From Natronococcus sp. CG52 (GTDB lineage: Archaea > Halobacteriota > Halobacteria > Halobacteriales > Natrialbaceae): a stretch of 64,000 bases of DNA. Under the pieces are notes generated by a model that was not told where the DNA came from, made no database searches, and worked only from the letters and a program-made list of their open reading frames with translations. Positions 20,046-46,171 of the stretch are shown in pieces (position 1 is the first letter of the stretch; each line of letters begins with the position of its first letter). The stretch is taken from assembly GCF_023913515.1 (NCBI RefSeq), contig NZ_CP099393.1, positions 310,001-374,000 of the forward strand, written 5' to 3'. A program made the translations under genes and the position numbers.

Positions 20046-20909
20046 ATGGAAACGCAAAATTGGCACCATGGATTTGAGAACGGGTTTGCAAGGACGCTCA
20101 GTGATTTTCTTGAGCCGTACTCGCCGACCATCGTTGTCAAAGATTCACAGTTGCAGAAACGAGGACAGCATGCGAGGGCGCAGTTACGAACGGTACCGTT
20201 TTTCCAACTCTTCGGATTCAATTCGGTGATCCACGCTGAGATTTGGGATAATCAGTACAAGATGGTCGACTACGAACCCACGGAGCCGGCAGCGGCACTC
20301 GAACGCGTGGACGACCTCTCATTCCCGCTTGTGCATATCGTTACGCAAGAAGGGATCACGGAGTACGGCGAGGAAGAACTCGTCCGTCGATTGGTGAGAC
20401 GGTCGATCGAGGAAGGGGGAGAGTACGTCCTCGTTACGGATACAGTTTCACCGACGACGCCGACGTACACCAAGAAACCGGGGAAATCACTTCCCGATGA
20501 GTTCGTCGATATGACCGTGAAAGATTACGCTCATCTCTCGAATACGTTCCTGAGAGAGTACCTCGACTCACGACTTCCGGTCGTGGAAACGCGGAACCTG
20601 TTCCTTCACGCAACATCGACGATTCACAACCGCGAAGGCGCACCTGCGTCGTCGATCGAGGAGTTATTCGATTATACGAAGGCGCCGTCACAGAGTCCGG
20701 TCTGGGAATCCGTCGAATACTTCCTTCGACACGATCTCGAGAGCGTCCTTGAGGATTATTCTGAACACATTCGGGAGGCACTGCGATCGTGGATGGAACG
20801 CGGCGACACCCAGAAAGTGGCCAACCACATTCTCGAAACCTTGCAGGTGTGCAACTACGATGAAACAGAACTAGAAACGTATCGACAACGCAACCCACAG
20901 TACCGATGA
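20046..20909 (+). CDS. Unrecognised first protein of the Dpd-like operon
   Basis: 287 aa from ATG 20046 (METQNWHHGFE); the frame is open 14 codons further to a GTG, less likely. The N-terminal half looks alpha/beta (PFFQLFGFNSVIHAEIWDNQ; FPLVHIVTQEGITEYGEEEL), the C-terminal half helical (YFLRHDLESVLEDYSEHIRE). No catalytic motif was recognised. Its stop overlaps the next start by four bases (ATGA), so it is translationally coupled to the DpdG-like gene and most likely belongs to the system. It is not one of the Dpd proteins I can name, and may be a lineage-specific component. Confidence 0.7.
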   Translation: METQNWHHGFENGFARTLSDFLEPYSPTIVVKDSQLQKRGQHARAQLRTVPFFQLFGFNSVIHAEIWDNQYKMVDYEPTEPAAALERVDDLSFPLVHIVTQEGITEYGEEELVRRLVRRSIEEGGEYVLVTDTVSPTTPTYTKKPGKSLPDEFVDMTVKDYAHLSNTFLREYLDSRLPVVETRNLFLHATSTIHNREGAPASSIEELFDYTKAPSQSPVWESVEYFLRHDLESVLEDYSEHIREALRSWMERGDTQKVANHILETLQVCNYDETELETYRQRNPQYR

Positions 20910-21781
20910 CAGCCAATAACTACCGAGAGGCGGATGGAAAGCCGGAGAAAACGCTCGTCAACTACAACACAGTTCGGCCACCTGAACTGAAGCAAATCTG
21001 CAAGACACTATCGAAGCACGGGTCCGGGGCAACGACCGTGAAATCGCTTCGAGATGCATTCGTACTGGACGATGACGACCACCTCGAGCGATGCCTCAAG
21101 TTCCTACACGGTATCGACCTGATTGAACGGCCCGAGGAACGAGTCGTGGAACGGGTGAACGAGGACGTATTCCCGGAACTCTCGTTCGAGGCGCGACTTC
21201 TCCACCATCTCCACCACCAAGAGCAGCCACAAGATCACCTCGCGAGAGCACAGGCAATCGCGTTCAAGAACTCGCCACGAACCCTCGATCGAGAGTTGCT
21301 CGTAACCTACCTCAAGCGCGATCTAGAGTACATAAATTGGAACAAGACGAAAGTGAACATGTGGTATCGGCTGTACGAAGGCATTGGGGCCCTATCGTTC
21401 GTCGATACTCGTGAACTCGTTCTGAGTCCGTCTCGAACACTCCTGTACGAGTTGCTCGAAACGTTCCACGAAACGGAAGGGTCGACCGACTTTGGCGAGG
21501 CCGTCGCGTGGATCGAGGAGCACTTTCTGTCGGTCCGAATCGACCGCCCAGGAACCCCTCGTCTCCATCAGGGAGTCACCGATACGCTGCAGAATCTCAT
21601 GGATAAAGACGCTATCGACGTTCGAGGAATGGCCGATGCCCAGAACGAAGTGATACTTCCCTCGACGCACTCGCACCACGAGGAACCTGCTATAAAAGAG
21701 TTCGAACTTCACGGACTCCCGTCGAACCGCACTGCAAGTACCAGATACCCGCTCGAGCGATTTACGGAGGTCTCACAATGA
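20906..21781 (+). CDS. DpdG-like protein (by position and size)
   Basis: 291 aa. An N-terminal winged-helix-like segment (LKQICKTLSKHGSGATTVKS, then HLERCLKFLHGIDLI) is followed by a helical body (LVTYLKRDLEYINWNKTKVN, WYRLYEGIGALSFV). Size, all-helical nature and placement directly before a large ATPase match DpdG of the bacterial 7-deazaguanine restriction operon (order G-H-I-J-K), but homology was not tested. Start and stop overlap both neighbours by four bases, so it is made in step with the ATPase. A winged helix paired with an AAA protein recurs at 43.1-45.1 kb. Confidence 0.65.
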   Translation: MTANNYREADGKPEKTLVNYNTVRPPELKQICKTLSKHGSGATTVKSLRDAFVLDDDDHLERCLKFLHGIDLIERPEERVVERVNEDVFPELSFEARLLHHLHHQEQPQDHLARAQAIAFKNSPRTLDRELLVTYLKRDLEYINWNKTKVNMWYRLYEGIGALSFVDTRELVLSPSRTLLYELLETFHETEGSTDFGEAVAWIEEHFLSVRIDRPGTPRLHQGVTDTLQNLMDKDAIDVRGMADAQNEVILPSTHSHHEEPAIKEFELHGLPSNRTASTRYPLERFTEVSQ

Positions 21782-24700
21782 CTACAATGCCGATCGACTG
21801 GGACAACGAGGCTGTCAAACGATATCTGACCGCCGAGTCCCATCAGAAGTCGAAAGAAGAGTTCGAACGAACACATATAGATATCGACAGGATCGAGGCG
21901 GAGTACCTCTTTCCCCATTCGACTACCGACGACTTCGTCACACAGGCCGAGTTCCGGGATGCAGTCCTGAAGTCGTCAGTGATGGACGACAACCGGATCT
22001 TCATTCTCCGAGGGGAGACGGGTTCCGGAAAGAGCCAGTTGTGCCAGTGGCTAGAGTACCAAATCGGGGAGAGCCGTGGATCTGGAGTCGATGACACACA
22101 CATCGCCCTCCACGTGTCACGGAGTCAGACCCAAATTAGCGACATCATCGACATTCTCACTGAGCCAGTAGATATCGACATTCAGGTCGGTAATGTCGAC
22201 CAACTCGACCCGGAGAAAGTTGCGAGTGCGATGGTGGCCAATCTTGAGGCCTATGCTCCGACGGCTCTCGAGATGCTCACTCCAGACGAGGTTTCAAAGC
22301 TCGTTGAAAAGCGCCAGAACGGCGTCGATCTCGAGGAGATTCTCGAGGACAATATTAGAAAATATCAGGAAGCGGTAGAGAGCGACGGTGAAAGGGAGAT
22401 ACCGAACCTCATTTCGGAGGACGACTACCGGAAACTGTCGCTCGCTGCGTTCAATCAGGCTCGAGGTGGAGATACGATCTTTCCCGCACTTCGAGGATTC
22501 CTTCATGATGAACTTTCGTCGAAACTCAACGTCGGGGATTTCCAGGAGAAATTAGAAACCATCTCGGATGCGTATGTGGAGGAAGGGCTCCGTCCTGTTC
22601 TGATCTGTGAGGATCTGACAACGTTCAGCGTGTTGAAAGAGCAACTCCTCGATCACATCTTCCAACTCGATAGTGGACACTACGACGTCGTTCTGGGGTG
22701 GACGACGGGATGGGAGAAGGACGACCTGAGCAAAGCCCTTGGAACGAGCGAGGACACGTACACATACATGAAAGACCGGGCAGAGGGATACCTCAGTACG
22801 ACCGACGACTCCGGTCAGGCGTACTTTCTGACCGAGGACGTGACGGTCGAACTCGCCCGAAAATATCTCTCCGTGATTAGAGAGGACTCGGACATGGATC
22901 CCGGCGTCGAGATTCCACATAGCGACTTCGACGATCTGTACCCGTTCAACGCCGAGTTCGTTCGGCAATCGTACGAAAACCTCGTTCAGGACGGAAATGA
23001 GCGGCGAACGCCACGCCTCCTCCTTATTCGAATTGTGAAGGAATGTCTCAATGCGACGGCCCCACCGTTCGAAGCGATCGACGGAAACCCGTACGTAAAG
23101 CAGTTCCCAACGCCGGTTTCACTCGAGTATCCAACGACCATTCAATCGTTGGCAAAATGGTACGGCATTCCAACAGCCAATGGCGACATTCGGATCCCAC
23201 GAGGGATCTTCGAGACGTTCGATATCCCGGTTCCAACGTCGACGATCTCGAAAACGGAGTCGGACATCGTTCTCCCTCGAGAAGGGGGCGGTACGATACA
23301 AACGACATTTAACCTTCAGCAAGTGGGTGGAACAATCAAACCTGGGGCAGAGATTACGATCGAAACAACGCTTAATGCCCGTCCGGAGTCCGATGTCGAA
23401 GTAGAGTTAAATGGTGATCATATCGGATTTACGGAGGACGATGGAACGCTTGCGGTAGAGCTGCCAGACGAAGAACAGGAGGTCACGATCATAGCCAAAA
23501 AGGCACAGTTAGCCGATACTATTGAGTTTACCGTCGGAACAGACTCTCTACAACTAACTGCAGACCCGTCACAGCCTGCACAAGGAGAGGAAGTTACCGT
23601 CACGACTCGAATAAACGGGGAACCAATTGAGGGAGTACGGATCTACCGTGACGGGGAATTTGTCGGAGAAAGTGACGAAGATGGCACAGTTCAAGTCACA
23701 GGCGCAAAAGCGCCTCGGATGACGATCAATGGTGAATTCGACGAACTGGAGAACGAACTCACGATTCCAGTTGTCGATGACAGTATCTATCCTGTAGATA
23801 CGAAACTGGACGATGACGAGGTCGAACAACGACTCCACGAATACCAACAGTGGCTCAAAAATGGCGAAAAGTACGATAGCTCAGGTACCCTCAAGGAGGG
23901 TGCTGCAAACGTTTTGGAGTTGTGGCATGACCCGACTCGTCTCGCAAATCCAAACGCTTCGGCGACGGGTGTCGCAGGGATATACTACTCTCGAGGAAAC
24001 GCGACACCAGTCTCAATCCAATCAGTGGACGAACGAACGGGAATTAGTATCGAGCTGCCGTTCGGGACCGACCACGATTCGATATACAAGCCGCTCTTGT
24101 GGTCTGGAATTAGTTCGAGCGATGATCTACCCCGTGAAGATCGCTATAACCTGAATTACGATCTTGTACAGGGATGGGTCGATGACAAGGTTGCCGAGTT
24201 CCGGGCACAAATGCGTGCAGATATCGAGGAGTGCCTGGAGAAGTGTGGAGAGGGTTGGACCATCGAGGAATTCATCATCGTTGCCCAATATCTCCTGCAC
24301 AACGTTGGCAAAGGAGTCACCGACGTTTCCCGAAGCCTGGTTTTCGAGGAATATTCCGCAACGAAGGACTACGACCATCCAGTAACCAAGAGGTTCAAGA
24401 GAACAGATAGCTTCTTCGACGCGCACGGTACGCTAACGAAATCGAGTAGTGCCCCTCTCGATCTTGCTGAGGGGTTCTTTAAATTGAAAGAGAACTTCGT
24501 TGACGACGAGCGACTCTCGCGTGCATACGATCGAGTCGCCGAGGATCCTTCTTCGTACGTCACTGAGGCGATGTATATCGATTCGAGTGATCTTCCTGAT
24601 GCCTACAAAATCAGGACTTCAAGGACCTCCACAGAACACGTCAAGCTCGGAACACTATTCAAACGAGTCAGAGAGTACGCCCAGGAACTGAATTCGCTGG

Positions 24701-25170
24701 GCGCGAGTGATGTCGAACACATCACGAAGAGCGTCGAACGAATCGACCAGTGGTTCGACGAATCCCACAATGTGCCCGAGTTGCTGGAACTGTACAACAC
24801 GCTGTATGAGTCGATTGGCACTCTCGAGCGAACAGCTAACGATCGATGGAAGAAACAGAAAGAAGTGCTCGAGAGTGAGGACGGAATTCACTTAACGGAG
24901 TTCAAGAGGGACATTGAATCGTTCCGGGACATCGAATCGAAGAGTGGACCTGAACTTATTGCCCTACTCCATCGGTTCGAGGAGAGTCGTGACCAACGTG
25001 TCGAATGGGAGATTTACGAAGCGATCGACGAGATGATCCAAGCGACTCGGGAGGTCGACATTCCTGAGACGGGGGACAAACTCGAGACCGAAGTGCGAAA
25101 ATCGGACGAGATGGGGAAGTTACTGAAGCAGCGTTCTGCAGTCGAGGGCGTCATCGGAGGTGAGCACTAA
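21778..25170 (+). CDS. dpdH: DpdH-like large P-loop ATPase with internal Ig-like domains
   Basis: 1130 aa. Walker A is LRGETGSGKSQLCQWLEYQI (about residues 78-97), and a hydrophobic strand ending in acid (LRPVLICEDLTTF, about 267-279) fits Walker B. After the ATPase part, residues about 516-667 are two beta-sandwich repeats of bacterial Ig/big type (GAEITIETTLNARPESDVEV; GEEVTVTTRINGEPIEGVRI, then VYRDGEFVGESDEDGT-like turn), normally found in secreted proteins, although this one has no signal peptide. The C-terminal ~450 residues are helical. The name DpdH is by position and architecture. In the bacterial system the G-K proteins are needed for restriction of unmodified DNA; an ATP-driven scaffold role is inferred. 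Confidence 0.7.
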   Translation: MTTMPIDWDNEAVKRYLTAESHQKSKEEFERTHIDIDRIEAEYLFPHSTTDDFVTQAEFRDAVLKSSVMDDNRIFILRGETGSGKSQLCQWLEYQIGESRGSGVDDTHIALHVSRSQTQISDIIDILTEPVDIDIQVGNVDQLDPEKVASAMVANLEAYAPTALEMLTPDEVSKLVEKRQNGVDLEEILEDNIRKYQEAVESDGEREIPNLISEDDYRKLSLAAFNQARGGDTIFPALRGFLHDELSSKLNVGDFQEKLETISDAYVEEGLRPVLICEDLTTFSVLKEQLLDHIFQLDSGHYDVVLGWTTGWEKDDLSKALGTSEDTYTYMKDRAEGYLSTTDDSGQAYFLTEDVTVELARKYLSVIREDSDMDPGVEIPHSDFDDLYPFNAEFVRQSYENLVQDGNERRTPRLLLIRIVKECLNATAPPFEAIDGNPYVKQFPTPVSLEYPTTIQSLAKWYGIPTANGDIRIPRGIFETFDIPVPTSTISKTESDIVLPREGGGTIQTTFNLQQVGGTIKPGAEITIETTLNARPESDVEVELNGDHIGFTEDDGTLAVELPDEEQEVTIIAKKAQLADTIEFTVGTDSLQLTADPSQPAQGEEVTVTTRINGEPIEGVRIYRDGEFVGESDEDGTVQVTGAKAPRMTINGEFDELENELTIPVVDDSIYPVDTKLDDDEVEQRLHEYQQWLKNGEKYDSSGTLKEGAANVLELWHDPTRLANPNASATGVAGIYYSRGNATPVSIQSVDERTGISIELPFGTDHDSIYKPLLWSGISSSDDLPREDRYNLNYDLVQGWVDDKVAEFRAQMRADIEECLEKCGEGWTIEEFIIVAQYLLHNVGKGVTDVSRSLVFEEYSATKDYDHPVTKRFKRTDSFFDAHGTLTKSSSAPLDLAEGFFKLKENFVDDERLSRAYDRVAEDPSSYVTEAMYIDSSDLPDAYKIRTSRTSTEHVKLGTLFKRVREYAQELNSLGASDVEHITKSVERIDQWFDESHNVPELLELYNTLYESIGTLERTANDRWKKQKEVLESEDGIHLTEFKRDIESFRDIESKSGPELIALLHRFEESRDQRVEWEIYEAIDEMIQATREVDIPETGDKLETEVRKSDEMGKLLKQRSAVEGVIGGEH

Positions 25171-25952
25171 TGGGACAAACATCAGAAACGGTCCGTGCAA
25201 GGAACGCACTCAAATCAGAAGTCGAAGCCATTGAATCGAAAGCCGACAAATACGAAGAAGCGACGAACTTCGAAGAGAAAAAAACGGAGTATCTGAATGA
25301 CTTATCGAAGATAACGACTGAACTCGGTCGATTAGAGCGCCGTGTTGAGCATATGGAATTTAATACCGCAATTCTCTCAACGGTATTTGATGAGAAGGAC
25401 CGGTCGAGCCTTAGCGACGTAAACGATGCCCGACGCCGAGTTCGTTCGGTTGTCGACCACGACCAAGATTACTGCTACGAACTGGTTGCCGAGGGGAAAA
25501 CTGACCAATATATTTCAAAAGTTCGACCGATTGGGGGACAAGTAGAACAAGCAACCGAGGCTGTTAAAGATGATCTTCGTGATATAGAAGATCAGTGGAA
25601 CACTCGAGTCCAATCCGCAAAAAACGTTCAGCGCCTAGTTAGTGGGTCCCGGAACGCTCAACGAACACTCGATTATATCGAGACCTTTGTCAATAAGCGT
25701 ATTTGGGACGACGACGAGGAGATTTCGGTCCTCGAGTCCGATTGGCGTGGCCTCGAGAAGCAGTGGGAAGACGGACTGGTCGTCGATTGGAATCAGTTCC
25801 AGAAAACTCACGGACTGAGTGACGACACAATCGAGGTCTTGAAGAGGTTAGCTGACGGCAAGACTGTTAAACTACGCGCACTCTCGGAAGATATCGCGGG
25901 TGAGTTGTTGTCCGTTGACGAATTGCAGAGCGTCGTCGAACTCAGCATCTAA
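25170..25952 (+). CDS. DpdI-like coiled-coil protein
   Basis: 260 aa. The start overlaps the previous stop by one base (TAATG). The N-terminal ~70 residues are strongly heptad-like (RNALKSEVEAIESKADKYEE, then DLSKITTELGRLERRVEHME), with another helical stretch to about 150. The C-terminal 60 residues (LSDDTIEVLKRLADGKTVKL, LSEDIAGELLS) look like a small winged helix. The small gene between the ATPase and the helicase corresponds to dpdI in bacterial clusters; this is a positional match only. A role as adaptor between ATPase and helicase is plausible. Confidence 0.65.
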   Translation: MGQTSETVRARNALKSEVEAIESKADKYEEATNFEEKKTEYLNDLSKITTELGRLERRVEHMEFNTAILSTVFDEKDRSSLSDVNDARRRVRSVVDHDQDYCYELVAEGKTDQYISKVRPIGGQVEQATEAVKDDLRDIEDQWNTRVQSAKNVQRLVSGSRNAQRTLDYIETFVNKRIWDDDEEISVLESDWRGLEKQWEDGLVVDWNQFQKTHGLSDDTIEVLKRLADGKTVKLRALSEDIAGELLSVDELQSVVELSI

Positions 25953-25955
25953 CAG

Positions 25956-28900
25956 ATGGAACATCCAGCAGAACGTGCAGAAGAGGTCATCGAAGCCTAC
26001 GAACACAACTTCGTAGGCAGAGTCGGCGAGGCCGCACGAAGCGTGGCGAGTCGCTACGAAAACACACCTGGCACCGAGGACTCATTGATCAGCATCCGAG
26101 GCCCGTACCTTCAAGCGCTCGATGTTCCGAACTGGAGCGATCAGTCGTGGGAGTCGTTCTGCAGCGAGGCTGGTGTCAATCCACTCGTTCGGGAGGCGTT
26201 CTCCGAATTAGGATTTCGGCGACTATACGACTTCCAGGAGCGGAGCATCGAAACGATCAGCCAGGGACACGATACCGTCGTCACCGCCGCAACGGGTCGC
26301 GGGAAGACTGAAGCGTGGCTCATCCCAATACTCGACCGGATTCTCGAGAGAAAGCGCCAGGAAGACGAGACCAGCGTTAAAGCGACACTCATCTATCCGA
26401 CGAAGGCACTTGCACAGGATCAGTTCAAGCGACTGGTACAGTACCTCTACGCCATCAACAAAAAGTGGCCGTCGTCGGAACAGATTACGATCGGGATTTA
26501 CGACGGTGATACGCCAACGAACGTCGGCTCAAAGGCGCAGGGGTATCTCCAATCGTCGTTCAAGTATTTCGAGTGCCCTGGGAGAAACGACGACCTCGAG
26601 AAATGTCGCCACTGCGGCCAGGGTGTCCGAGTGCACCATGGCGGCCAACAGTACGAACTGCAACCCGAGAAGCGCCAGTGTATCGACGATGTGCCACTCG
26701 ACTTCATCAAACTCACAAAACACTCGATACTGAACGAGGGTGTCGATATCCTGCTAACGAACCCGGATACGATCAACCTCAAACTCATCAATGTAAATGC
26801 AAACGACGAGCACGAATCATTTATTTATGATCCAGAGTTCCTCGTCTTTGACGAGGTTCACACCTATGATGGATTGTTCGGGAGTTATACTGCGACTCTC
26901 ACGAAACGGCTTAGAGCACTTCGCAATGAACGCGGGTATGACGACCTGCAGGTCATCGCCAGCAGTGCAACCGTAGACAACGACGTCGAACTCTTCCAGA
27001 AAGTCAGTGGCGCCCCAACGGTCGAGCATGTTCCTGAGCGACCGCGAACGTTAGAGCCGTCAGCAGTCGACGCCCTTCCGAGCGCGTTTCTCACAGAGGA
27101 CGTGACCAACGAAACCTTGCTGGAGTTCGCTCATGGCGGCCCTGCACCTGCGCTCCTTTCGAATCTCTCATTCGATGTGGAACCGGAGGCACACGACAAC
27201 GAGAGGCTGGAAGAGTTGCTTCAGGATGCACTGTTTGACTACTTCACTGCAGGCGCTCAGTCAGACCCGATTGTGAATACCGTCCAGAACCTCCATCAGG
27301 AACTCGTCGACGATCCGCGACCTCGACACGAGTTCCTCGAGTCAATCGCGGATCGATACAATCTTGAGGAGAGCGAGGCAGAGACCGTTCTCGACAACTT
27401 CCAAACGGTAGGGATCTTTTCGGGACTACTGGAGAATCGAACGCATCTGTTCTCCTGGCCGATCGATGGATTCTACGCGTGTGCGGCCTGTGACGCAGTC
27501 TATCGATCACCACAGGATTCGTGTACAGCTTGTGAACACGAGTTTGTAACTCGAGCGGCATACTGTCGCGGCTGTAACGATGAAGCGTTAGTTGCGTGGT
27601 ACTGTCCGGACTGTAATCAACTCGAACCGTACATCCCGACGGACGAAGGCGATGTTGCGATCGAAGACGAGCATTACTGCCAACGGTGTCGACAGACCCG
27701 TGCGGAGGATGTCCGATCACTTCGGGTCACCTTCCATCCGACACTGGAGTGTACTTCATGCGGTACGCGTTCGAAACGATCGACAGTCGAACCGTGCGAG
27801 GCTTGTGGGACCAACATGGTGCATACGGACCCTGACGTGCTCTCGTGTCCGAATCCTTCGTGTGAAGAAACTCGTTCCTACGAGTCAGGTTGTCCTGATT
27901 GTGGAGAACGGCAACGACCAGTAGCCGGCGATTCATACGTCGATTGTTCTGATTGTGGTGAAACCCACAAGATAGGCCGAAATGCAGAACCCTGTACCTG
28001 TGGTAATTCGCTCGCTCAAACCCAATATATCCCCTGGGTCTGTCGTAACGAAGAGTGTGATCGCCAGTACTTCGGAGACCCACCGGACACGTGTGAGTGT
28101 GGATCGTCGTATACGTTCGCTCGAACGGGCCTATTCGAAGTCTTTGAGGACCAGTATTGTGAGGCGTGTGATACGTCCTTCGTCGGAGACCCAACGTGTG
28201 ACTGTGCGGAACGGCATTCTCGGCGACGAGAGGGGGCCCACCAGTCCTACAAAACGTTCGATCGGAACGGCAAGATACGGACTGCGAGCAGTTTCCGGGC
28301 TGCGGTCCCCTGTACCCACAAATCATTGCGGTACGATTCGAACAGACGCTACGACGAACTCGTTCGTGGTCCAGGTAACCTTGCGGTAACGACCTCCCAG
28401 TACCTACTGCGACGTGTTGCCGACGACGAGGGCTACGAGTCGGCGAAAATGCTCTCGTTCGCCGACTCACACCGGGACATGAAAGAATTGGACCGTGATT
28501 TCACTGAACCAGAGGTCGGGACACTACTCGATCAATCATTGCTCGAAGAACTCCGGGAGATGGAGACCGCTTGGGTTCCATTCGACGACGTACTCGACGG
28601 TGCAATGGACCGGATTGACACGCTTCATGATGAGCTCAGCCCACCCAAAGACGTCCAAAACCTCTCGTTCAAACTGAAAGCCGAACTCGTGGACAGCGCA
28701 CGCCGGCATATGGATGTTGAGAACGCGATCCGCGATCGACTCCGCCGGCGGGGAATACCGCACCGATACAGTCCACGATATCGTGAGTACGGCGGTTCAC
28801 TCGCGGAGGAGGGACTTGTAGATGTCCGGCTCTCACCAGTGCTCTACGAGTCGCTCGACGAGCCGGCTCGTTCCGTATTGCGCGAACTCGTGAAGGCCGG

Positions 28901-31442: not shown

Positions 31443-31462
31443 AGCGTTTAACGAGACCCACC

Positions 31463-38927: not shown

Positions 38928-38994
38928 TATATTATATATGCCTAAATGAATGGAGGGGGTAGTCGCATATATGAACATAGGTGAAGTGGGGAGA

Positions 38995-39004
38995 TTCATA
39001 TAGA
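38995..39004 (+). promoter_or_regulatory. Probable TATA box before dpdA
   Basis: TTCATATAGA about 40 bases before the GTG at 39040, within the 112-base gap after dpdK. Two further AT-rich TATA-like tracts lie at 38925-38942. It suggests that dpdA and the next gene have their own promoter, separating modification from restriction genes. Confidence 0.45.
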
Positions 39005-39039
39005 AGAACGCGCAAACCTTGAGACGGTGAACACTATCT

Positions 39040-41241
39040 GTGAGGTTCTACGTTCCTGAATGGGATGACAACGTCGATGCTTACTATGACTTCGAGCACG
39101 ACGAGCACTCGGAGCTCGGGACCGAGGAGCGCGAGCAACACTATATCTGGGATATTTTCGACTACGAAACAACCCCAATAGACGGCGTGCTCATTTCACG
39201 CGAACAGGTCGAAGAGAGCGCCACGAAATTCGATCAACTCACATCCTATGGAGTCTACGACGAACGATCAGATCTCAATATCCCTGACTGGCTCCCGACG
39301 ATCAGTGACTGCGGCGCCTGGGGCTACAAATCGCTCCCGTTCCCTCCCTACGACAACGACGAGATGCTGGCGTTCTACGAAGACCTCGGCGTCACAGTTG
39401 GCGTGACGATCGACCACCTAGTGCTCGGGTCTGGACACGAGACCCGTCTCTATCTCGACAAACGCGCGTTCGCTGACTCCCCTCTCACGCCGAGTGACCT
39501 CCCCGAAGCGTTGACTGACGAAGTCGACGTCATGGTCGACGACTGGCCCACAGAGTGGCCGGACTACGTCGATGACTACGACCCGACGATATACGATGTA
39601 TCCACCGTCGAGCCGTTCGAACAGGAAGATTTCGAGGGCGATCCGGCAGCAGTGCTCGAGCGCCTTGACGACGACCCCCGGGCCGTCTACCGAGACGACG
39701 ACACGGAGTTCCGATACCAACTGACGCTCAACAACGCCGCGGAGATGAAGGAGTTGTACGACGCTAACAACTACTCCTTCCGGCTGATGGTCGCGATTCA
39801 GGGCTGGGATCCGACGTCGTACACGCGAGCAGCGGATCAGGTACTCGACCTGGGCTATCAGTACGTCGGTATCGGCGGCGTCGCCGGGAGCAACGCTAGC
39901 AGAATTCGGGATATCGTTACCGGCGTCGGGAACGCGGTCAAAGAACACGAACGAGCCCGGAAGACGCGAGTCGATACACACGTGTTCGGGTTCGCGAAAA
40001 CCGATGCGTTCGATGCGATCGGTCAAACCGGGATGACGAGTTTCGACAGCGCGAGTATGCTCCGGTCGGCTTGGACCGGCGGTGACAACTACCACCTCGA
40101 TAGCGAACGCCGCTACGACGCGCTTCGCGTCCGATTCGGCTCGAACAGGGATCCACTCGAGGAACAGATCGAAACCGCCCTCCGTGGACAGGAGTTGCTC
40201 CATTCGCTGCGAGCATTCGACGAGGATGAATCGATGTCCCAAGCGATCAGAGAGTGGGCCGCTGAGGCGGAAGACGCCCTCGACGAGTTGGCGTCCTACC
40301 TAGAGAACCATCGCCACGACGACGAGTACGACCAGCGTCTACTTCGGGATGTTGAGGACCACTTCCGTGACCACTACGATCACGGTCGCGAACTGCGGGC
40401 GAGTTTCAGTCGCTCACTCCGAAAGCAGGTAATCAAACTTCTTCGAGAGGACGACCCCGAATCCCCTGTCGAGTTCGAACAGTATCAAACGTTGATCGGG
40501 ACTGCTCGAGAGAAATTTGAGGAGTTCCCTAGGATGGCAGAGACAATCGAACAAGACGAAGAGGAGATAGATGATGTTGCTACGTTCAACCAGATCAAAG
40601 AACTCGTTGAGGATTATGCGGACTGGATCGGCGATGAGCGGTTGCTCAAGGAATACGAGAAACTCCTCAAAGAAGAGCCATGGACGGAATGCGACTGTGA
40701 AATCTGTCGAGAATACGGCATCGAAGTCGCTATCTTCCGAGGGAACAATCGCAACCGTCGTCGAGGATTTCACAATACGAAACGGTTCTACGATCAGTTC
40801 CAGGAAGATCTCCCGAAAACACTTGTCGTCACACCAGCTACTGATGCGATCGCAAAAAAGAGCTTGATAGAGGGATATTTCCTTACCGAACACACAGACT
40901 TCTGGTCGAGCGTCCATGACCTACCGGTTGCCGAGGTTGGCGTGATAAGCGAAACGGGCGTTCACGAGTGGTGGGCGGACGCACCAGCGTCAGTTTCGCT
41001 CGATTCGGATGCCATGGCAGTATCCGTCGGCGAGTTCTGTGCACGATACCAGAATGTCTTCCTATACGATCCCGAGGAGACGATTCATCGTGATGTCGTC
41101 CAGAACATCGAACAACACGGCTGTGCCGTCGAGTCATACGAGCGATCACAGGACCTTCGGGCGGCCGTTCTCGATCGACTGGGATATGACAGCGAGTTCG
41201 TGCCGGAATTTATGGTTCAAAAGGGGCTGATGGAGTTCTAA
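39040..41241 (+). CDS. dpdA: DpdA, TGT-like DNA guanine transglycosylase
   Basis: 733 aa from GTG 39040. The N-terminal pattern RFYVPEWDDNVDAYYDFEHD suits DpdA. TGT-fold signatures: SDCGAWGYKS (about residues 89-98), VAIQGWDP (about 254), QYVGIGGVAGSN (about 277-288), HVFGFAKTDAF followed by TSFDSASML (about 313-341, holding the nucleophile Asp), and a zinc site CDCEIC (about 549-554) completed by a His in RRRGFHN. Bacterial DpdA swaps guanine in DNA for preQ0; archaeal tRNA TGT does the same at G15 for archaeosine. The length and the large helical insertion (about 370-540) distinguish it from tRNA TGT. It is two bases from a DUF6884-like gene. Confidence 0.85.
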   Translation: MRFYVPEWDDNVDAYYDFEHDEHSELGTEEREQHYIWDIFDYETTPIDGVLISREQVEESATKFDQLTSYGVYDERSDLNIPDWLPTISDCGAWGYKSLPFPPYDNDEMLAFYEDLGVTVGVTIDHLVLGSGHETRLYLDKRAFADSPLTPSDLPEALTDEVDVMVDDWPTEWPDYVDDYDPTIYDVSTVEPFEQEDFEGDPAAVLERLDDDPRAVYRDDDTEFRYQLTLNNAAEMKELYDANNYSFRLMVAIQGWDPTSYTRAADQVLDLGYQYVGIGGVAGSNASRIRDIVTGVGNAVKEHERARKTRVDTHVFGFAKTDAFDAIGQTGMTSFDSASMLRSAWTGGDNYHLDSERRYDALRVRFGSNRDPLEEQIETALRGQELLHSLRAFDEDESMSQAIREWAAEAEDALDELASYLENHRHDDEYDQRLLRDVEDHFRDHYDHGRELRASFSRSLRKQVIKLLREDDPESPVEFEQYQTLIGTAREKFEEFPRMAETIEQDEEEIDDVATFNQIKELVEDYADWIGDERLLKEYEKLLKEEPWTECDCEICREYGIEVAIFRGNNRNRRRGFHNTKRFYDQFQEDLPKTLVVTPATDAIAKKSLIEGYFLTEHTDFWSSVHDLPVAEVGVISETGVHEWWADAPASVSLDSDAMAVSVGEFCARYQNVFLYDPEETIHRDVVQNIEQHGCAVESYERSQDLRAAVLDRLGYDSEFVPEFMVQKGLMEF

Positions 41242-41243
41242 TC

Positions 41244-41945
41244 ATGGACATACTCATCATCGATCAGTGTTCGAACAAGAAATCGTACCCAGACGAGAGC
41301 GCCGTCTTCGACGCGGCAGACATCGACAAGGCGGGTCTCGATACCCTTCGCGATCGTGAGGAGGCTGTCAGTCTGCCGGCACGAAAGCTCTATGGGGGGC
41401 GCCAGCAGCGGTACATTAGTGAAGCAACAGACTCCCTCCGCGCCGATCGGCATACCGTCGACCGCTATTTCATCAGTGCCGGATTCGGACTCGTCGAAGA
41501 GCGCGAGGAACTTCCGCCGTACGACGTGACCTTCGCAAAGATGACTGATAGCGAAATCGAATCCCGTTCTGCGTCACTACAGATTTCGGAGCGCACGCAG
41601 GAAGTGATCTCCGCCACCTCTTACGACGTTGTCTTTCTGGCACTTGGGAGGGATTACTATCAGGCCCTGGATGTGCCCGAGATCTTGGCTGCATTGCCCG
41701 AGACCTCGATCGGCGTGACCTTCAACCAGGAGGAGGTCGCAGATCGATACGAGAACGTTGTTTCGGTTCCCGCTCGGACCGACCAAGCGAAGGAACAGGG
41801 CACGATCGTCGTTGCGCTGAAGGGGACCTACCTGAAAAACTTTGCAGCCCGTCTCGACCCTGGTGGTGAACTCGAAACACCTGACGAAGTGGAATCAGCC
41901 TGTCTCTCTAAGCCGACCTCACAGCAGGATCTGTCTGATTTCTAG
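41244..41945 (+). CDS. DUF6884-like protein, DpdA partner
   Basis: 233 aa, two bases after dpdA. Start MDILIIDQCSNKKSYPDE, then SLPARKLYGGRQQRYISEAT, YFISAGFGLVEEREELPPYD and DVVFLALGRDYYQAL. The Cys-x-x-K/K start, Arg-x-x-Tyr helix and SAGFGL...PYD block are the hallmarks of DUF6884, commonly found fused to or beside DpdA/TgtA-type enzymes. Its role is unknown; a part in base exchange or substrate delivery is plausible. The family call is fairly confident, the function is inference. Confidence 0.7.
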   Translation: MDILIIDQCSNKKSYPDESAVFDAADIDKAGLDTLRDREEAVSLPARKLYGGRQQRYISEATDSLRADRHTVDRYFISAGFGLVEEREELPPYDVTFAKMTDSEIESRSASLQISERTQEVISATSYDVVFLALGRDYYQALDVPEILAALPETSIGVTFNQEEVADRYENVVSVPARTDQAKEQGTIVVALKGTYLKNFAARLDPGGELETPDEVESACLSKPTSQQDLSDF

Positions 41946-41995
41946 ATCCTAACTCAGGTACTTTGTCCGTTCTCTCTATCTGTTCTAGATTAGAT

Positions 41996-42020
41996 TTAAA
42001 TATTGTAGTCTTAATATGCA
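41996..42020 (+). promoter_or_regulatory. TATA-like tracts before the second TGT gene
   Basis: TTTAAATATT (about 41996-42005) and CTTAATATGC (42011-42020) lie 35-60 bases before ATG 42056 in a 110-base gap. This is consistent with an independent promoter for the three-gene TGT/wHTH/AAA operon. Confidence 0.4.
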
Positions 42021-42055
42021 AATTACTTTATTTCGGCCAGCTGAGCTAAAACCCG

Positions 42056-43090
42056 ATGCTGTATCGACAGCAAGTGCTCGATCTTCCACATGGAGAACTG
42101 CATACCCCAGTTCTCTTTCCCGTCCGAAACCTTGGGAAGCGGTCGAGTGACAACACACCAGCATACGTAGACATGATCCCGGATCTCCCAACGGCGATGA
42201 TCAACGCCCGTGCGATCAGAAACCGGGATCCAATGTGGGAGCGGTTGACTGATGGGGTGACGCTCAGAGAGGAGATGGGTGTTCCGGAGAACACGATCGT
42301 CTATGCCGATAGTGGTGGGTACGATTTCAGTCAGACAGCACCAGATACAACACCTCGAGAAACTCTCGAGACCCAACGGTTGTTCGATGCCGATATTTTT
42401 GGCACAGTAGACATTCCACTATCCAGAGAGAATCGGGCGGCAAAGAATCAACGTCGAATCGATCGAAGTGTTGAACTTGCGTTAGAAGCGAGCGATCGTC
42501 ATAATGGGGATGAACTTCTGCTCGCAAGTGTTCACGGGTATGATCCGGAGACGATTCAAAACAGTATTCGATATCTAGAAATCCGAGGTGATTTCGATGG
42601 ATATGCGCTAGGGAGTCTCGTCCCAATACGAACAGATTACAAAAAAGTCACAAAACTCGTTTTGGCAGCCCGAACTGCGACGGAGAAACACCTCCACGTC
42701 TATGGGCTTGGCGGACTGGTCTATCAGCCCCTTTTGCTCTATCTTGGAGTGGATAGTTTCGATTCGTCTGCCTTCATTCGAAGCGCAGGCAATCGAAACT
42801 ACTTGCTCCCCGGATTCGGCGGTGAAGAGCTGTGGAATATCGATGAGCTCGAATACCTCCCTTGTCCCTGTCCCGTCTGTGGGTCCCGAACACTCAACGA
42901 TATCCGAGAGGATCGTGATGCGCTGGTTAAGCACAACCTTTGGGCACTGGCCGCGGAATTACGCCGATTTCGGTACGTCTCGGCTGCTGGCAAGGATATC
43001 GAGGACTATCTTGATCTCCGGTTCCAGGGCAACGAAGTAACACAACGAGCATACAGAACGGCCAAGCAGCAAGTTCGGAGGTTATCATGA
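42056..43090 (+). CDS. Second TGT-family protein (short DpdA-like)
   Basis: 344 aa. TGT fold: LDLPHGELHTPVLFPVRNLG at the N-terminus, YADSGGYDF (about residues 82-90, catalytic region SGGF in tRNA TGT), ASVHGYDPE (about 157), FDGYALGSLVP (about 181), YGLGGLVYQPLLLYLGVDSF followed by DSSAF (nucleophile Asp, about 232-236), and a complete zinc site CPCPVCG (about 268-274) with His in LVKHNLW (about 292). It is too short for archaeal tRNA TGT, which carries extra C-terminal domains including PUA, and resembles phage-type DpdA. It is coupled by a four-base overlap to a wHTH gene and an AAA gene, so it belongs to a separate module from the 733-aa DpdA. Confidence 0.8.
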   Translation: MLYRQQVLDLPHGELHTPVLFPVRNLGKRSSDNTPAYVDMIPDLPTAMINARAIRNRDPMWERLTDGVTLREEMGVPENTIVYADSGGYDFSQTAPDTTPRETLETQRLFDADIFGTVDIPLSRENRAAKNQRRIDRSVELALEASDRHNGDELLLASVHGYDPETIQNSIRYLEIRGDFDGYALGSLVPIRTDYKKVTKLVLAARTATEKHLHVYGLGGLVYQPLLLYLGVDSFDSSAFIRSAGNRNYLLPGFGGEELWNIDELEYLPCPCPVCGSRTLNDIREDRDALVKHNLWALAAELRRFRYVSAAGKDIEDYLDLRFQGNEVTQRAYRTAKQQVRRLS

Positions 43091-43989
43091 CCACCGAACG
43101 CGCAACGGTTCGCCCCGTGACTCTTGGCCGACTCACGGAACTTACTCACCTCTGTGAGACGATCGGGAACACGACGGCCGAGATCGAAGACGCACTGGAT
43201 ATCACGAATCGACGCGCCCGAGAGACGGTTCTCGAAGCCACACGGATCGGACTACTCGAAGAACACAACGCGGAAGACAGCGAGGAGGAAGCAGTCTACC
43301 GGACGACCCCTGTTGGAGAGCGGTTTCTGGACGCAATCCGTGACGAAGATTGGTCGACAGCGGATGATATTCTGACTGTTCGAAGCCCGCATTACAGTGC
43401 CTTCTCTGAGGCACTGTCCGAAATCGGGCCAATCGGCCCCGATAAACTGCTCAAACACCTCGAGGACGCACACGAATTCTCGTCCTATTCGTTCAACCAG
43501 ACCGGGATCGAGGTCATTGGAAGTTGGGGTGAACGACTCGGCGGAATCCAACGGAACGCCTTCACAGGCGATTACTACGTCGTCAATCGTGTATCCCTTC
43601 CGGAGAATTTCCAGTACGTTCTCCTCGAGATCTACGACGAACTCGAGGAGACGGCTGGTGTCAACCTTCGCCAGCGCTATCTCTCGATCCCGCGGCTCCG
43701 AGAGCGAACTTGTGAACGACTTGGATGTACTCGAGAGACGTTCGACCGAGGACTCTCGAAACTCTGTCAGGAGAACGTCGGCAAACTCGAGTTATCAGGT
43801 GCGCCGCTGGATACGGCGGCGAAAGACTCGGCGCTGGGTATCAAAGAAATTGAACTTGCAGACGGTGACTCACTCGTTTCGACCTCGCAGTCGACTCGCC
43901 AAGTAATGGCCGGCCTCGAACAGTTCGACAAACAGTACTACTATCTCGCGGTGTACGACCGCGAGATTACGTTCACACCAGACCAATGA
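43087..43989 (+). CDS. Winged-helix protein coupled to TGT and AAA genes
   Basis: 300 aa, overlapping both neighbours by four bases (ATGA). The N-terminal winged helix is LTHLCETIGNTTAEIEDALD, then RARETVLEATRIGLLEE. A second HTH-like region follows (EALSEIGPIGPDKLLKHL), as does a helical C-terminal part with RLRERTCERLGCTRETFDRG. It resembles the DNA-binding companions often encoded before ATPases of the Orc1/MoxR class in defence operons. Specific family not recognised. In this context it may target the TGT homologue or the ATPase to DNA. Confidence 0.65.
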   Translation: MTTERATVRPVTLGRLTELTHLCETIGNTTAEIEDALDITNRRARETVLEATRIGLLEEHNAEDSEEEAVYRTTPVGERFLDAIRDEDWSTADDILTVRSPHYSAFSEALSEIGPIGPDKLLKHLEDAHEFSSYSFNQTGIEVIGSWGERLGGIQRNAFTGDYYVVNRVSLPENFQYVLLEIYDELEETAGVNLRQRYLSIPRLRERTCERLGCTRETFDRGLSKLCQENVGKLELSGAPLDTAAKDSALGIKEIELADGDSLVSTSQSTRQVMAGLEQFDKQYYYLAVYDREITFTPDQ

Positions 43990-45137
43990 GCGAAGCCTTC
44001 AACATCAGCGACGAGGCACAGAACTACGATCAATTCGGACTCGACGAGAATCCGTTTCCGTATAGTCCGGTTCCCGCGAAAAATCCAGAAATATACTGCG
44101 GGCAAGAACAAGCGACGGCTGCGATCAGTTCGACGGTCTCGACGACGCTATCAACGGGCAAATCGAAGCACCTTGTCGTCACTGGAAAGTACGGTAACGG
44201 CAAGTCTCATACACTCAAGTACACACGATCACTTCTCCGAGATCGAAAAGACGTCGTCGTCGGCTACGTCGCTCAACCCGGAGAGGGGTTCGTCGACATC
44301 TATCATGAGTTCATGTATGACCTCGGCTTCAGTGAGGTACAGGATATCGCGTATGAGTATCTTGCATCAATTGCACGAGAGATCACCGAGACGAACCCCG
44401 TTGGTGCAAATGCGATGCGCTCGCTTATTGACGAAGGAGAGGTACTCCTATCAGAAATCATTCCAGAGACCATCAAGCGATTGAGCGACGTGACGCAGTT
44501 CGCAGACTTCGCTAGAGCGATCGTGCATATGGTGTACGAGGACACGAATCTATACGCGTGGCAGTGGCTCACCGCAGAAGGAATTCGATACGAACAGCGG
44601 AAAGAAATGGAGATCCACACGGCTCTAGACGACGATACGATGGGCGTACGAGCGTTTACAGCACTGAAGAATGTGCTCCTTGAGTTAGGATACACTGCCG
44701 TTTTTGTCTTCATCGACGAATTTGAGAGCATTGCGCGACTCTCGTCTAAAGACGAGCAGGCAACGCTGAACAGCATTCGTCACCTGATGGATCAAAACAG
44801 TGAGGGGCTCTGTCTTTTGTTCGGTTGTGCACCCGAAGTTTGGCAGGACGTGATGAGTGAGTACCATGCATTCAGTGAGCGAATCGGTCAAGAAGTCGCC
44901 CTTCGACCGCTTACGAACGAGCATCTCCATGAGTTGGTTGAAGAGTATCTTGAACAGGAGCGCATAGGCGAAGCAGTCGGTGTACAGCCGTTTACTGAGG
45001 ATGGACTAGATATGGTATTACAGCGGTCACAAGGAAATATACGTCAGGTCCTTTCAGTCTGTAGCCGTCTTTTGGACTCCGCAGCACAGAGTCAGCAGTC
45101 TAAAATCACTGCAGAATTTGTCCAAGAATCGCTTTGA
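43986..45137 (+). CDS. AAA ATPase (Orc1/Cdc6- or BrxC-like) of the second TGT operon
   Basis: 383 aa. After a lead YDQFGLDENPFPYSPVP, Walker A is VTGKYGNGKSHTLKY (about residues 66-80) and Walker B VFVFIDEFES (about 239-248), followed by sensor-like and lid helices (GCAPEVWQDV; VLQRSQGNIRQVLSVCSRLL). The total length and lead resemble Orc1/Cdc6-type ATPases, but no C-terminal origin-binding winged helix is present. It could provide the ATP-driven DNA-remodelling that DpdB supplies in the bacterial system; that is inference. Last gene of its operon. Confidence 0.75.
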   Translation: MSEAFNISDEAQNYDQFGLDENPFPYSPVPAKNPEIYCGQEQATAAISSTVSTTLSTGKSKHLVVTGKYGNGKSHTLKYTRSLLRDRKDVVVGYVAQPGEGFVDIYHEFMYDLGFSEVQDIAYEYLASIAREITETNPVGANAMRSLIDEGEVLLSEIIPETIKRLSDVTQFADFARAIVHMVYEDTNLYAWQWLTAEGIRYEQRKEMEIHTALDDDTMGVRAFTALKNVLLELGYTAVFVFIDEFESIARLSSKDEQATLNSIRHLMDQNSEGLCLLFGCAPEVWQDVMSEYHAFSERIGQEVALRPLTNEHLHELVEEYLEQERIGEAVGVQPFTEDGLDMVLQRSQGNIRQVLSVCSRLLDSAAQSQQSKITAEFVQESL

Positions 45138-45511
45138 TCAAATCGACTAACTAATATATAGAAACAAGCCAGTTTTCGGATATATTTGAGGTTGATGACA
45201 GCGTTTAAGTAATTATCTTAGTCTAATTACTTGAATCCAATCCTATCTGAAAAATTCTTATATCCATTAATTCACATAAATCCCTCCTAACCCAAATATT
45301 TCCTGCGAAAGGGAGAGAATTTTCAAGTTAAATTCGGAGTCCAAGGGGATATCTATGAATTCCGCAGTTCTCTGTATGACCAACCAATAAGACTATATGC
45401 TCTACCCATATTCTACAGATATGATTCCGAGAAGGACAGAAGCTACCAGAGATAGGATTCAATCATTGTTAGTGTATAACAAGAGGTTCCAGATCACGTG
45501 GGTGATTCTGC
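45138..45511. other. AT-rich intergenic region
   Basis: 374 bases, clearly AT-richer than surrounding genes, with no coding frame. It separates the AAA gene from the transporter gene and probably contains the latter's promoter. No further structure was recognised. Confidence 0.5.
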
Positions 45512-46171
45512 GTGCAAATTGAAGACACTCGAGCGATCTTCACTGCCCTATTTGCAGGATCCGTCGTGCTCGCTAATGTGCTGGCAGCGAAATTAACATG
45601 GATCGAGTTACTCGGAATCGGCGGAGTCGCTATCCCGGCCGGATTCGTTGCGTTTGGCGTCGCATATCTAGCGTCTGACTTGCTTGTGGAATACCACGGG
45701 CGTGAGTACGCAGCGTCGGTCGTGAACGGGACTGTCTTCACTCTCATTGTGGCATACGTGCTGGTCTTCCTGGCGATCTGGATGCCAACAGCACCGTTCT
45801 ACGAAGGTCAAACAGCGTTCGAGGCTACATTGGGTGACTCAGCATCGATTATTTTGGCATCGGTTGTGGCATTAGCAATCGCTCAACACCTGGATGTTCG
45901 ACTGTTCTCGAATCTCAAGTCTCGAACCGGGGATAGCCATCGGTGGGTACGGAACTGTGGTTCGACGGCCGCCAGTCAAGGCGTTGATACAGTTGTGTTC
46001 ATCACACTCGGATTTGCGATTTTTCCCGCTCTGGGACTTGGTGGCGACCCATTATGGGGTTGGGCGCTAGTATCGATTGTCATTGGTCAGTATGTGGTCA
46101 AACTCCTGGTTGCACTCGTTGACACAATGCCGTTCTACGCAGTAACAGAAGTCGTTGAAGCGAAGGCTTGA
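45512..46171 (+). CDS. YhhQ/VUT-family queuosine-precursor transporter
   Basis: 219 aa from GTG 45512. Six hydrophobic helices. Family marks are SVVLANVLAAKLTWIELLGI at the start, IPAGFVAFGVAYLASDLLVE followed by YHGREYA (the conserved SDxxxExYG-like loop), then LSNLKSRTGDSHRWVRNCGS near the middle (RN at a conserved cytosolic loop) and TAASQGVDTVVFITLGF. The family (COG1738) imports queuosine precursors such as preQ0, preQ1 or queuine. Being the first gene after two TGT-like genes, it may secure the modified base for DNA. Start codon not firmly fixed. Confidence 0.8.
   Translation: MQIEDTRAIFTALFAGSVVLANVLAAKLTWIELLGIGGVAIPAGFVAFGVAYLASDLLVEYHGREYAASVVNGTVFTLIVAYVLVFLAIWMPTAPFYEGQTAFEATLGDSASIILASVVALAIAQHLDVRLFSNLKSRTGDSHRWVRNCGSTAASQGVDTVVFITLGFAIFPALGLGGDPLWGWALVSIVIGQYVVKLLVALVDTMPFYAVTEVVEAKA

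What the first reader, a model, noticed from the sequence alone, without database searches (positions are those of the whole stretch)
20046..46171. Haloarchaeal Dpd-type 7-deazaguanine DNA modification/restriction island
Seen: one packed operon encoding a wHTH protein, a large P-loop ATPase, a coiled-coil protein, two DEAD/DEAH helicases with MZB zinc motifs and a PLD protein, followed by a 733-aa TGT homologue with zinc site, a DUF6884-like gene and a second TGT homologue. Known: the bacterial Dpd cluster (DpdA TGT homologue; DpdG-DpdK for restriction) marks DNA with preQ0/ADG and restricts unmarked DNA; halovirus DpdA homologues exist. Inference: this is a chromosomal or plasmid archaeal version in an organism that already makes preQ0 for archaeosine.
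Basis: partly seen in the sequence, partly recalled or inferred. Interest (0 to 1): 0.92.

Follow-up and report, generated by a model that had tools for sequence, protein, structure and literature searches.

The report
Haloarchaeal BRIGADE DNA-marking defence island
A plasmid-borne gene cluster in a salt-loving archaeon that very probably marks its own DNA with an altered guanine and attacks unmarked DNA; it belongs to a class (BRIGADE type II) named only in 2025, and its marking half always carries a second, unexplained base-swapping enzyme.

Summary
Window 20046-46171 holds a packed restriction operon and a base-modification operon. The 733-aa protein is a genuine DpdA (NCBIfam equivalog 281 bits, cut-off 200; PDB 7ui4, E 4e-50). 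The next gene is DpdC-like, with a YaaA/DUF328 fold. With the PLD gene and 7-deazaguanine genes this matches BRIGADE type II (Bell et al. 2025 preprint, PMC12458937): a new member of a known, experimentally untested class.

My comparative work adds: the core DpdA-DUF6884-TGT2-wHTH-BrxD-like ATPase is obligate (DpdA and TGT2 each in 56 of 391 haloarchaeal genomes, 55 shared); it carries alternative effector modules and evolves apart from them; preQ0 genes or a YhhQ transporter often accompany it; a divergent Csa3-like CARF regulator adjoins the restriction operon in 12 loci, whose genomes lack detectable Cas10.

Most likely mechanism: preQ0 is swapped into DNA, probably hydrolysed to dADG, and the helicase/PLD module destroys unmarked DNA. 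The replicon is a circular plasmid of about 343.6 kb; the apparent second island copy is contig-end overlap.

The parts
19059..19703 (-). Csa3-like CARF-wHTH transcription regulator, divergent to the restriction operon
   Evidence: Pfam Csa3_N 5e-16 plus HTH; divergently adjacent to g1 (110-388 bp) in 12 retrieved regions including the window; annotated csa3 in L022, L024, L026
20046..20909 (+). g1, 287-aa protein of unknown fold, first gene of the restriction operon (20004 GTG is an alternative start)
   Evidence: no Pfam, PADLOC or NCBIfam hit; conserved family, profile match starts at 20046; in 35 of 391 genomes, 34 of them DpdA+
20906..21781 (+). g2, 291 aa, in the position of DpdG (homology not shown)
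   Evidence: no profile hits; hhalign to DpdG not significant
21778..25170 (+). DpdH-like P-loop ATPase, 1130 aa
   Evidence: NCBIfam DpdH 3.6e-12, N-terminal part only; Walker A GETGSGKS
25170..25952 (+). g4, 260-aa coiled-coil protein (position of DpdI)
   Evidence: only coiled-coil type weak hits; conserved in BRIGADE II loci
25956..31442 (+). YprA-family helicase 1 (BRIGADE II, clade B2a), 1828 aa
   Evidence: DEAD/Helicase_C, DruE/DpdJ/DrmA profile hits, tree, motifs
31463..36961 (+). YprA-family helicase 2 (clade B2b), 1832 aa, 36% identical to helicase 1
36954..38927 (+). PLD-family putative nuclease, 657 aa (ATG start at 36954)
   Evidence: PLDc_2 1.5e-6 above cut-off; invariant HxK...GSANF in 16 orthologues, but the Asp of the canonical HxKxxxxD motif is Gly
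39040..41241 (+). DpdA, DNA-guanine transglycosylase, 733 aa
   Evidence: NF041059 281 bits > 200; PDB 7ui4 4e-50; invariant catalytic and Zn residues D90, D125, Q254, D336, C551/C553/C556/H578
41244..41945 (+). DUF6884, DpdC-like protein (YaaA/DUF328 fold), 233 aa
   Evidence: PF21818 2.8e-8; PADLOC DpdC 3.7e-13; AF2 model pLDDT 86.6, only significant Foldseek hit 5caj YaaA; fused to DpdA in 30 of 52 DpdA regions
42056..43090 (+). TGT2, second transglycosylase, 344 aa, no PUA domain
   Evidence: TIGR00432 2.4e-36 below cut-off; PDB 1iq8 1e-22; own clade 100/99; all catalytic and Zn residues kept, His for Gln at the Q169 position
43087..43989 (+). 300-aa protein, probable N-terminal winged helix (low confidence)
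   Evidence: low-confidence AF2 model, N-terminal helical part only; always between TGT2 and BrxD
43986..45137 (+). BrxD-like (PF10923) AAA ATPase, 383 aa
   Evidence: PF10923 9.7e-19; PADLOC BrxD 2.4e-13; Walker A GKYGNGKS
45512..46171 (+). YhhQ/QueT-type queuosine precursor (preQ0) transporter
   Evidence: TIGR00697 1.8e-36 above cut-off; within the island in 11 of 53 retrieved regions

Best explanation
This is a BRIGADE type II island on a circular haloarchaeal plasmid of about 343.6 kb: a self-marking DNA modification core plus a helicase/nuclease restriction module. Inferred mechanism. (1) preQ0 is made by the host archaeosine pathway and/or imported by YhhQ. (2) DpdA, with TGT2 as obligate partner and with the BrxD-like ATPase and its 300-aa companion helping it onto DNA in place of DpdB, exchanges guanines in host DNA for preQ0. 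(3) The DpdC-like DUF6884 protein probably hydrolyses dPreQ0 to dADG. (4) The separate operon g1-g2-DpdH-like ATPase-coiled coil-two YprA helicases-PLD scans DNA and degrades DNA that lacks the mark; a Csa3-like CARF regulator probably controls this operon. Shown here: gene identities, intact catalytic motifs, family placement, co-occurrence and modularity. Inferred: which base is made, the order of steps, the roles of TGT2 and BrxD, and restriction itself.
For: DpdA over the equivalog cut-off and matching the solved DNA-guanine transglycosylase 7ui4; it groups with bacterial DpdA, not with tRNA TGTs. DUF6884 has DpdC profile hits and the YaaA fold, and is often fused to DpdA. preQ0 genes queC/D/E/folE (two or more) or YhhQ lie in 30 of 53 retrieved regions (annotated). 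The helicase tree reproduces the published BRIGADE layout: window helicases are two sister clades on the ARMADA/Druantia side, while Haladaptatus/Natrinema loci show the type I pattern, one helicase with DpdJ. DpdA and TGT2 are in 56 of 391 genomes each, 55 shared (Fisher p 6e-65). Restriction marker g1 in 35 genomes, 34 with DpdA (p 7e-33). Identity correlations: TGT2-wHTH-BrxD 0.90-0.93, YprA1-YprA2-PLD 0.97-1.0, between modules 0.34-0.58.
Against: No chemical or phenotypic evidence exists here. The DpdC match covers only the N-terminal part of DpdC, so dPreQ0 could be the final mark. DpdB is absent, so the loading step is speculative. The paper calls the type II helicases 'nearly identical', but these two share 36%. 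The PLD protein lacks the canonical Asp of HxKxxxxD. g1 and g2 have no known fold. Several loci carry the core with other effectors or none recognised, so the pairing with this restriction module is not fixed.
Confidence: 0.8

Rival explanations
1. Two adjacent but independent systems: a deazaguanine DNA-marking operon (39040-45137) and an unrelated helicase/PLD defence operon (20046-38927) that happen to share a defence island.
For: The modules evolve separately (between-module identity correlation 0.34-0.58 versus 0.90-1.0 within). The core also occurs with a different PD-(D/E)XK-containing module (10 regions) or with no recognised module. There are separate transcription units, sometimes divergent.
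Against: The restriction marker g1 is in DpdA+ genomes in 34 of 35 cases, far beyond chance, and lay within the retrieved flanks in 21 regions. The layout resembles bacterial Dpd clusters, where both halves were shown to act together (literature).
Confidence: 0.08
2. A canonical bacterial-type Dpd island moved into an archaeon.
For: DpdA above the family cut-off; DpdC-, DpdH- and PLD-like genes in a similar order to an annotated Enterobacter Dpd island.
Against: No DpdB over cut-off in 391 genomes; helicases not in the DpdJ clade; DpdH and DpdJ far below equivalog cut-offs; no DpdD or DpdE hit and only trace DpdF helicase-domain hits; two helicases and a second TGT.
Confidence: 0.05
3. The TGT operon acts on tRNA or on another RNA (or salvages queuosine/archaeosine precursors) rather than on DNA.
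For: TGT2's nearest profile and solved structure are archaeosine tRNA-guanine transglycosylase.
Against: TGT2 is about 344 aa and lacks the tRNA-binding C-terminal region; the genome has its own TgtA and a TGT-like ArcS on the main contig. DpdA belongs to the DNA-acting clade. The genes travel in defence islands.
Confidence: 0.05
4. BREX-related capture (BRC) system with a TGT (PMC12839542).
For: A TGT together with a BrxD-like ATPase.
Against: No PglZ, DUF4007, DUF6079/BrxC or HerA/FtsK hit among the island proteins.
Confidence: 0.02

Closest known systems
BRIGADE type II (Bell et al. 2025, PMC12458937)
   Same: Halophilic archaeon, predicted 7-deazaguanine cluster, two ARMADA-side YprA helicases with extra zinc motifs, PLD nuclease gene
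   Different: The two helicases share 36% identity here (the paper says 'nearly identical'). The second TGT, the wHTH-BrxD pair, YhhQ and the Csa3 regulator are not described in the paper's main text (its supplement could not be read).
Bacterial Dpd islands (dpdA-K, e.g. Enterobacter plasmid L033; literature: Salmonella Montevideo)
   Same: DpdA, DpdC-like, DpdH-like, a YprA helicase, PLD; preQ0-based marking expected
   Different: No DpdB, D or E; helicases from another YprA branch; a second TGT; archaeal host
Bacterial two-TGT Dpd loci (Paenibacillus pART37 L032, cyanobacterial plasmids L029 and L030)
   Same: DUF6884-like domain joined to DpdA, a second small TGT close by, no annotated DpdB
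   Different: The DUF6884-like domain is N-terminal to DpdA there; their second TGTs do not group with TGT2; no wHTH-BrxD pair annotated; Paenibacillus has an annotated DpdJ and DpdK
BRIGADE type I (Haladaptatus YSMS36 L137, Natrinema SYSU A 869 L138; my assignment)
   Same: Haloarchaeal, several TGTs (DUF6884 annotated in L137), two YprA helicases, PLD
   Different: One helicase groups with DpdJ; the two L137 TGTs tested did not score as clear DpdA

Membership tests
BRIGADE type II | Found in halophilic archaea | tested here: met
   Close relatives are all haloarchaeal; host is of the same class
BRIGADE type II | Predicted 7-deazaguanine gene cluster with Dpd homologues | tested here: met
   DpdA, DpdC-like, YhhQ
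BRIGADE type II | Two YprA helicases, both ARMADA-like | tested here: met
   Tree: sister clades B2a/B2b on the ARMADA/Druantia side, separated from DpdJ (SH-aLRT 99; quick method, no bootstrap)
BRIGADE type II | The two helicases 'nearly identical' | tested here: inconclusive
   36% sequence identity; the paper may mean architecture
BRIGADE type II | PLD (or PD-(D/E)xK) endonuclease in the operon | tested here: met
   PF13091 above cut-off; HxK..GSANF invariant
BRIGADE type II | BrxA-like insert after RecA1, RecA1 zinc hairpin, MarR-like insert in RecA2 | not tested
   Helicase structures were not predicted; 14 CxxC motifs counted in each helicase
Bacterial Dpd | DpdA above family cut-off | tested here: met
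   281 bits versus 200
Bacterial Dpd | DpdB present | tested here: not met
   0 of 391 haloarchaeal genomes over cut-off, none in G000
Bacterial Dpd | DpdC | tested here: inconclusive
   Partial PADLOC match, YaaA fold
Bacterial Dpd | DpdH, DpdJ, DpdK equivalogs | tested here: not met
   Hits below NCBIfam cut-offs or none
Bacterial Dpd | dPreQ0/dADG in DNA and restriction of unmodified DNA | not testable with these tools
   Needs LC-MS and transformation assays
Archaeosine tRNA transglycosylase (TgtA) | Equivalog score and tRNA-binding C-terminal region in TGT2 | tested here: not met
   125 bits versus cut-off 350; 344 aa

The most novel reading that the evidence does not exclude
A DpdB-free way of writing 7-deazaguanine into DNA. 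Two catalytically complete transglycosylases, DpdA and TGT2, work as an obligate pair (perhaps a heterodimer, as in eukaryotic queuine TGT), are loaded by a BrxD-type AAA ATPase and its 300-aa companion, and serve several interchangeable restriction modules. The restriction operon is switched by a CARF (Csa3-type) regulator although none of the 12 host genomes checked has a detectable Cas10 to make cyclic oligoadenylate.
Probability: 0.35. Interest if true: 0.72.

Novelty: new member of a known kind. Interest (0 to 1): 0.5.

Why it matters
BRIGADE has been proposed only from sequence, and I found no report of a 7-deazaguanine measured in a cellular archaeal genome. About 14% of sampled haloarchaeal species carry the DpdA/TGT2 core, including culturable strains, so the prediction is directly testable. 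It also offers a reason why haloviruses such as HVTV-1 fill their DNA with preQ1 (PMC6884629): to look like marked host DNA. The obligate second transglycosylase without DpdB reopens how such bases get into double-stranded DNA.

Tried and rejected
Second island copy in the genome: rejected, contig-end redundancy. Viral origin: TGT2 had no match in annotated phage genomes, DpdA only one weak phage match, and limited pattern scans of IMG/VR found no relative of either (low sensitivity). g2 as DpdG: similar position and length, but hhalign not significant (prob 1.3% and 9.6%). DpdC in the PDB by sequence: none; the fold search worked instead. Structure of the 300-aa protein: model too poor (pLDDT 48.5), not searched. 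A search of all genomes with the helicase profile failed technically; g1 was used as restriction-module marker instead. Strict mutual exclusion of DpdB and a second TGT in bacteria: not claimed, because Scytonema (L031) has DpdB plus what looks by eye like a degenerate TGT. BRC/BREX: gene content does not fit.

Full report
OBSERVATION. The window is G000:C3:310001-374000 of a haloarchaeal genome. C3 is 378,493 bp, and its first 20 kb equal window 33633-53636 at 99.87%. So C3 is a circular replicon of about 343.6 kb with overlapping ends, and there is one island, not two.

MODIFICATION CORE. The 39040 protein passes the DpdA equivalog cut-off (281 versus 200 bits) and matches the solved DNA-guanine transglycosylase 7ui4 (E 4e-50). 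In 13 homologues the residues at the positions of the general acid, the substrate-binding residues, the nucleophile and the zinc ligands are invariant. The next gene (DUF6884) has DpdC profile hits over its N-terminal half; its AlphaFold2 model (pLDDT 86.6) has one significant PDB match, YaaA/DUF328 (5caj, E 1.6e-5). PMC12839542 assigns DpdC to DUF328. In 30 of 52 DpdA regions the DpdA frame is long enough to include this domain at its C-terminus; in Paenibacillus and cyanobacteria a similar domain precedes DpdA (read from the sequences). That is good evidence for linked function.

SECOND TRANSGLYCOSYLASE. TGT2 (42056) is a separate, strongly supported clade (100/99) apart from DpdA (100/98), though several deep branches in that tree are long and its position relative to other TGTs is unsure. 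It keeps every catalytic and zinc residue but has His where TgtA, E. coli Tgt and haloarchaeal DpdA have Gln; Enterobacter DpdA also has His there. It lacks the C-terminal region of tRNA TgtA. In 391 haloarchaeal genomes DpdA occurs in 56 and TGT2 in 56, 55 shared (Fisher p 6e-65; genomes are related, so the p-value overstates independence). The two exceptions are draft assemblies, one with DpdA near a contig edge. Of the 52 DpdA regions, 49 hold TGT2, the 300-aa gene and BrxD together; the other three are split contigs or a second DpdA copy. In the plasmid collection the same 7 haloarchaeal plasmids hold DpdA, TGT2 and full-length BrxD. DpdB is over cut-off in none of the 391 genomes; two have weak partial matches. 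I infer that TGT2 and the BrxD pair do what DpdB does in bacteria; this is not shown.

RESTRICTION MODULE. The order g1-g2-DpdH-like-coiled coil-YprA1-YprA2-PLD is conserved. In a tree with DpdJ, ARMADA and Druantia-like references (the latter two labelled by me from gene context), the two window helicases form two sister clades on the ARMADA/Druantia side, while loci from Haladaptatus and Natrinema show one helicase with DpdJ and one on the ARMADA side. This is the type II versus type I split that Bell et al. describe for BRIGADE in halophilic archaea. The paper's 'nearly identical' does not fit 36% identity literally. Marker gene g1 occurs in 35 of 391 genomes, 34 of them DpdA+.

MODULARITY AND SUPPLY. 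Pairwise identities correlate at 0.90-0.93 among TGT2, wHTH and BrxD, at 0.97-1.0 among YprA1, YprA2 and PLD, at 0.72-0.75 between DpdA and the TGT2 group, but only 0.34-0.58 between core and effectors. At least three genes of this effector module were found in 32 of 53 retrieved regions, and a different module with a PD-(D/E)XK protein in 10 (flanks were limited to about 20 kb, so counts are lower bounds). Two or more of queC/D/E/folE, or YhhQ, are present in 30 of 53 regions. The window genome has a strong queC on the main contig C1 and YhhQ in the island. A Csa3-like regulator is divergently adjacent to g1 in 12 regions, and the Cas10 palm domain was not found in any of these 12 genomes. 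Csa3 proteins of Sulfolobales bind cyclic tetra-adenylate made by type III CRISPR (PMC8699464), so the ligand here is unexplained.

MECHANISM. Shown: identities, motifs, family placement, co-occurrence and modularity. Inferred: preQ0 exchange into DNA, hydrolysis to dADG, ATP-dependent loading, destruction of unmarked DNA by the helicase/PLD machinery, and CARF-controlled expression. The bacterial Dpd system is the experimental precedent (as cited in PMC6884629 and PMC11888242).

VERDICT. A real, well-preserved member of BRIGADE type II, a class already proposed in 2025 but untested. The parts I did not find described in the accessible text are the obligate TGT2-wHTH-BrxD partner set, its independence from the effector modules, and the CARF regulator without detectable Cas10.

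Noticed in passing
window 1-64000 versus G000:C3:1-34861: Contig C3 carries about 34.9 kb of terminal redundancy with a few mismatches and indels (first 20 kb checked); gene counts for this genome are inflated there.
   Followed up: yes
window 18375-18938 (minus): 187-aa protein next to the Csa3-like gene with a motif resembling PD-(D/E)xK nucleases (FAIEVKG) and no Pfam hit; longer homologues lie near several other islands.
   Followed up: no
window 10429-13650 (minus) and 15167-17452 (plus): UvrD helicase with a C-terminal PD-(D/E)XK domain, and a GHKL ATPase protein, upstream of the island: probably further defence genes.
   Followed up: no
L137 (Haladaptatus YSMS36 plasmid) and L138 (Natrinema SYSU A 869 plasmid): BRIGADE type I-like loci with two or three TGT genes each; one 673-aa TGT has a C-terminal stretch that looks like DUF6884, and the two TGTs examined share TGT2's His.
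   Followed up: partly
L029, L030 (cyanobacterial plasmids), L032 (Paenibacillus): Bacterial Dpd loci with a DUF6884-like domain N-terminal to DpdA and a second small TGT, without annotated DpdB; the cyanobacterial second TGTs have lost most zinc ligands.
   Followed up: partly
G026, G277 (L023) and about ten further regions: The same modification core with other or unrecognised effector genes, including a helicase module like that of BRIGADE type I in Natronosalvus.
   Followed up: partly
G508, G576, G584, G600 (same phylum, distant kin of the window genome): Shorter DpdA-like proteins (open frames of about 580 aa) in genomes outside the window's order.
   Followed up: no
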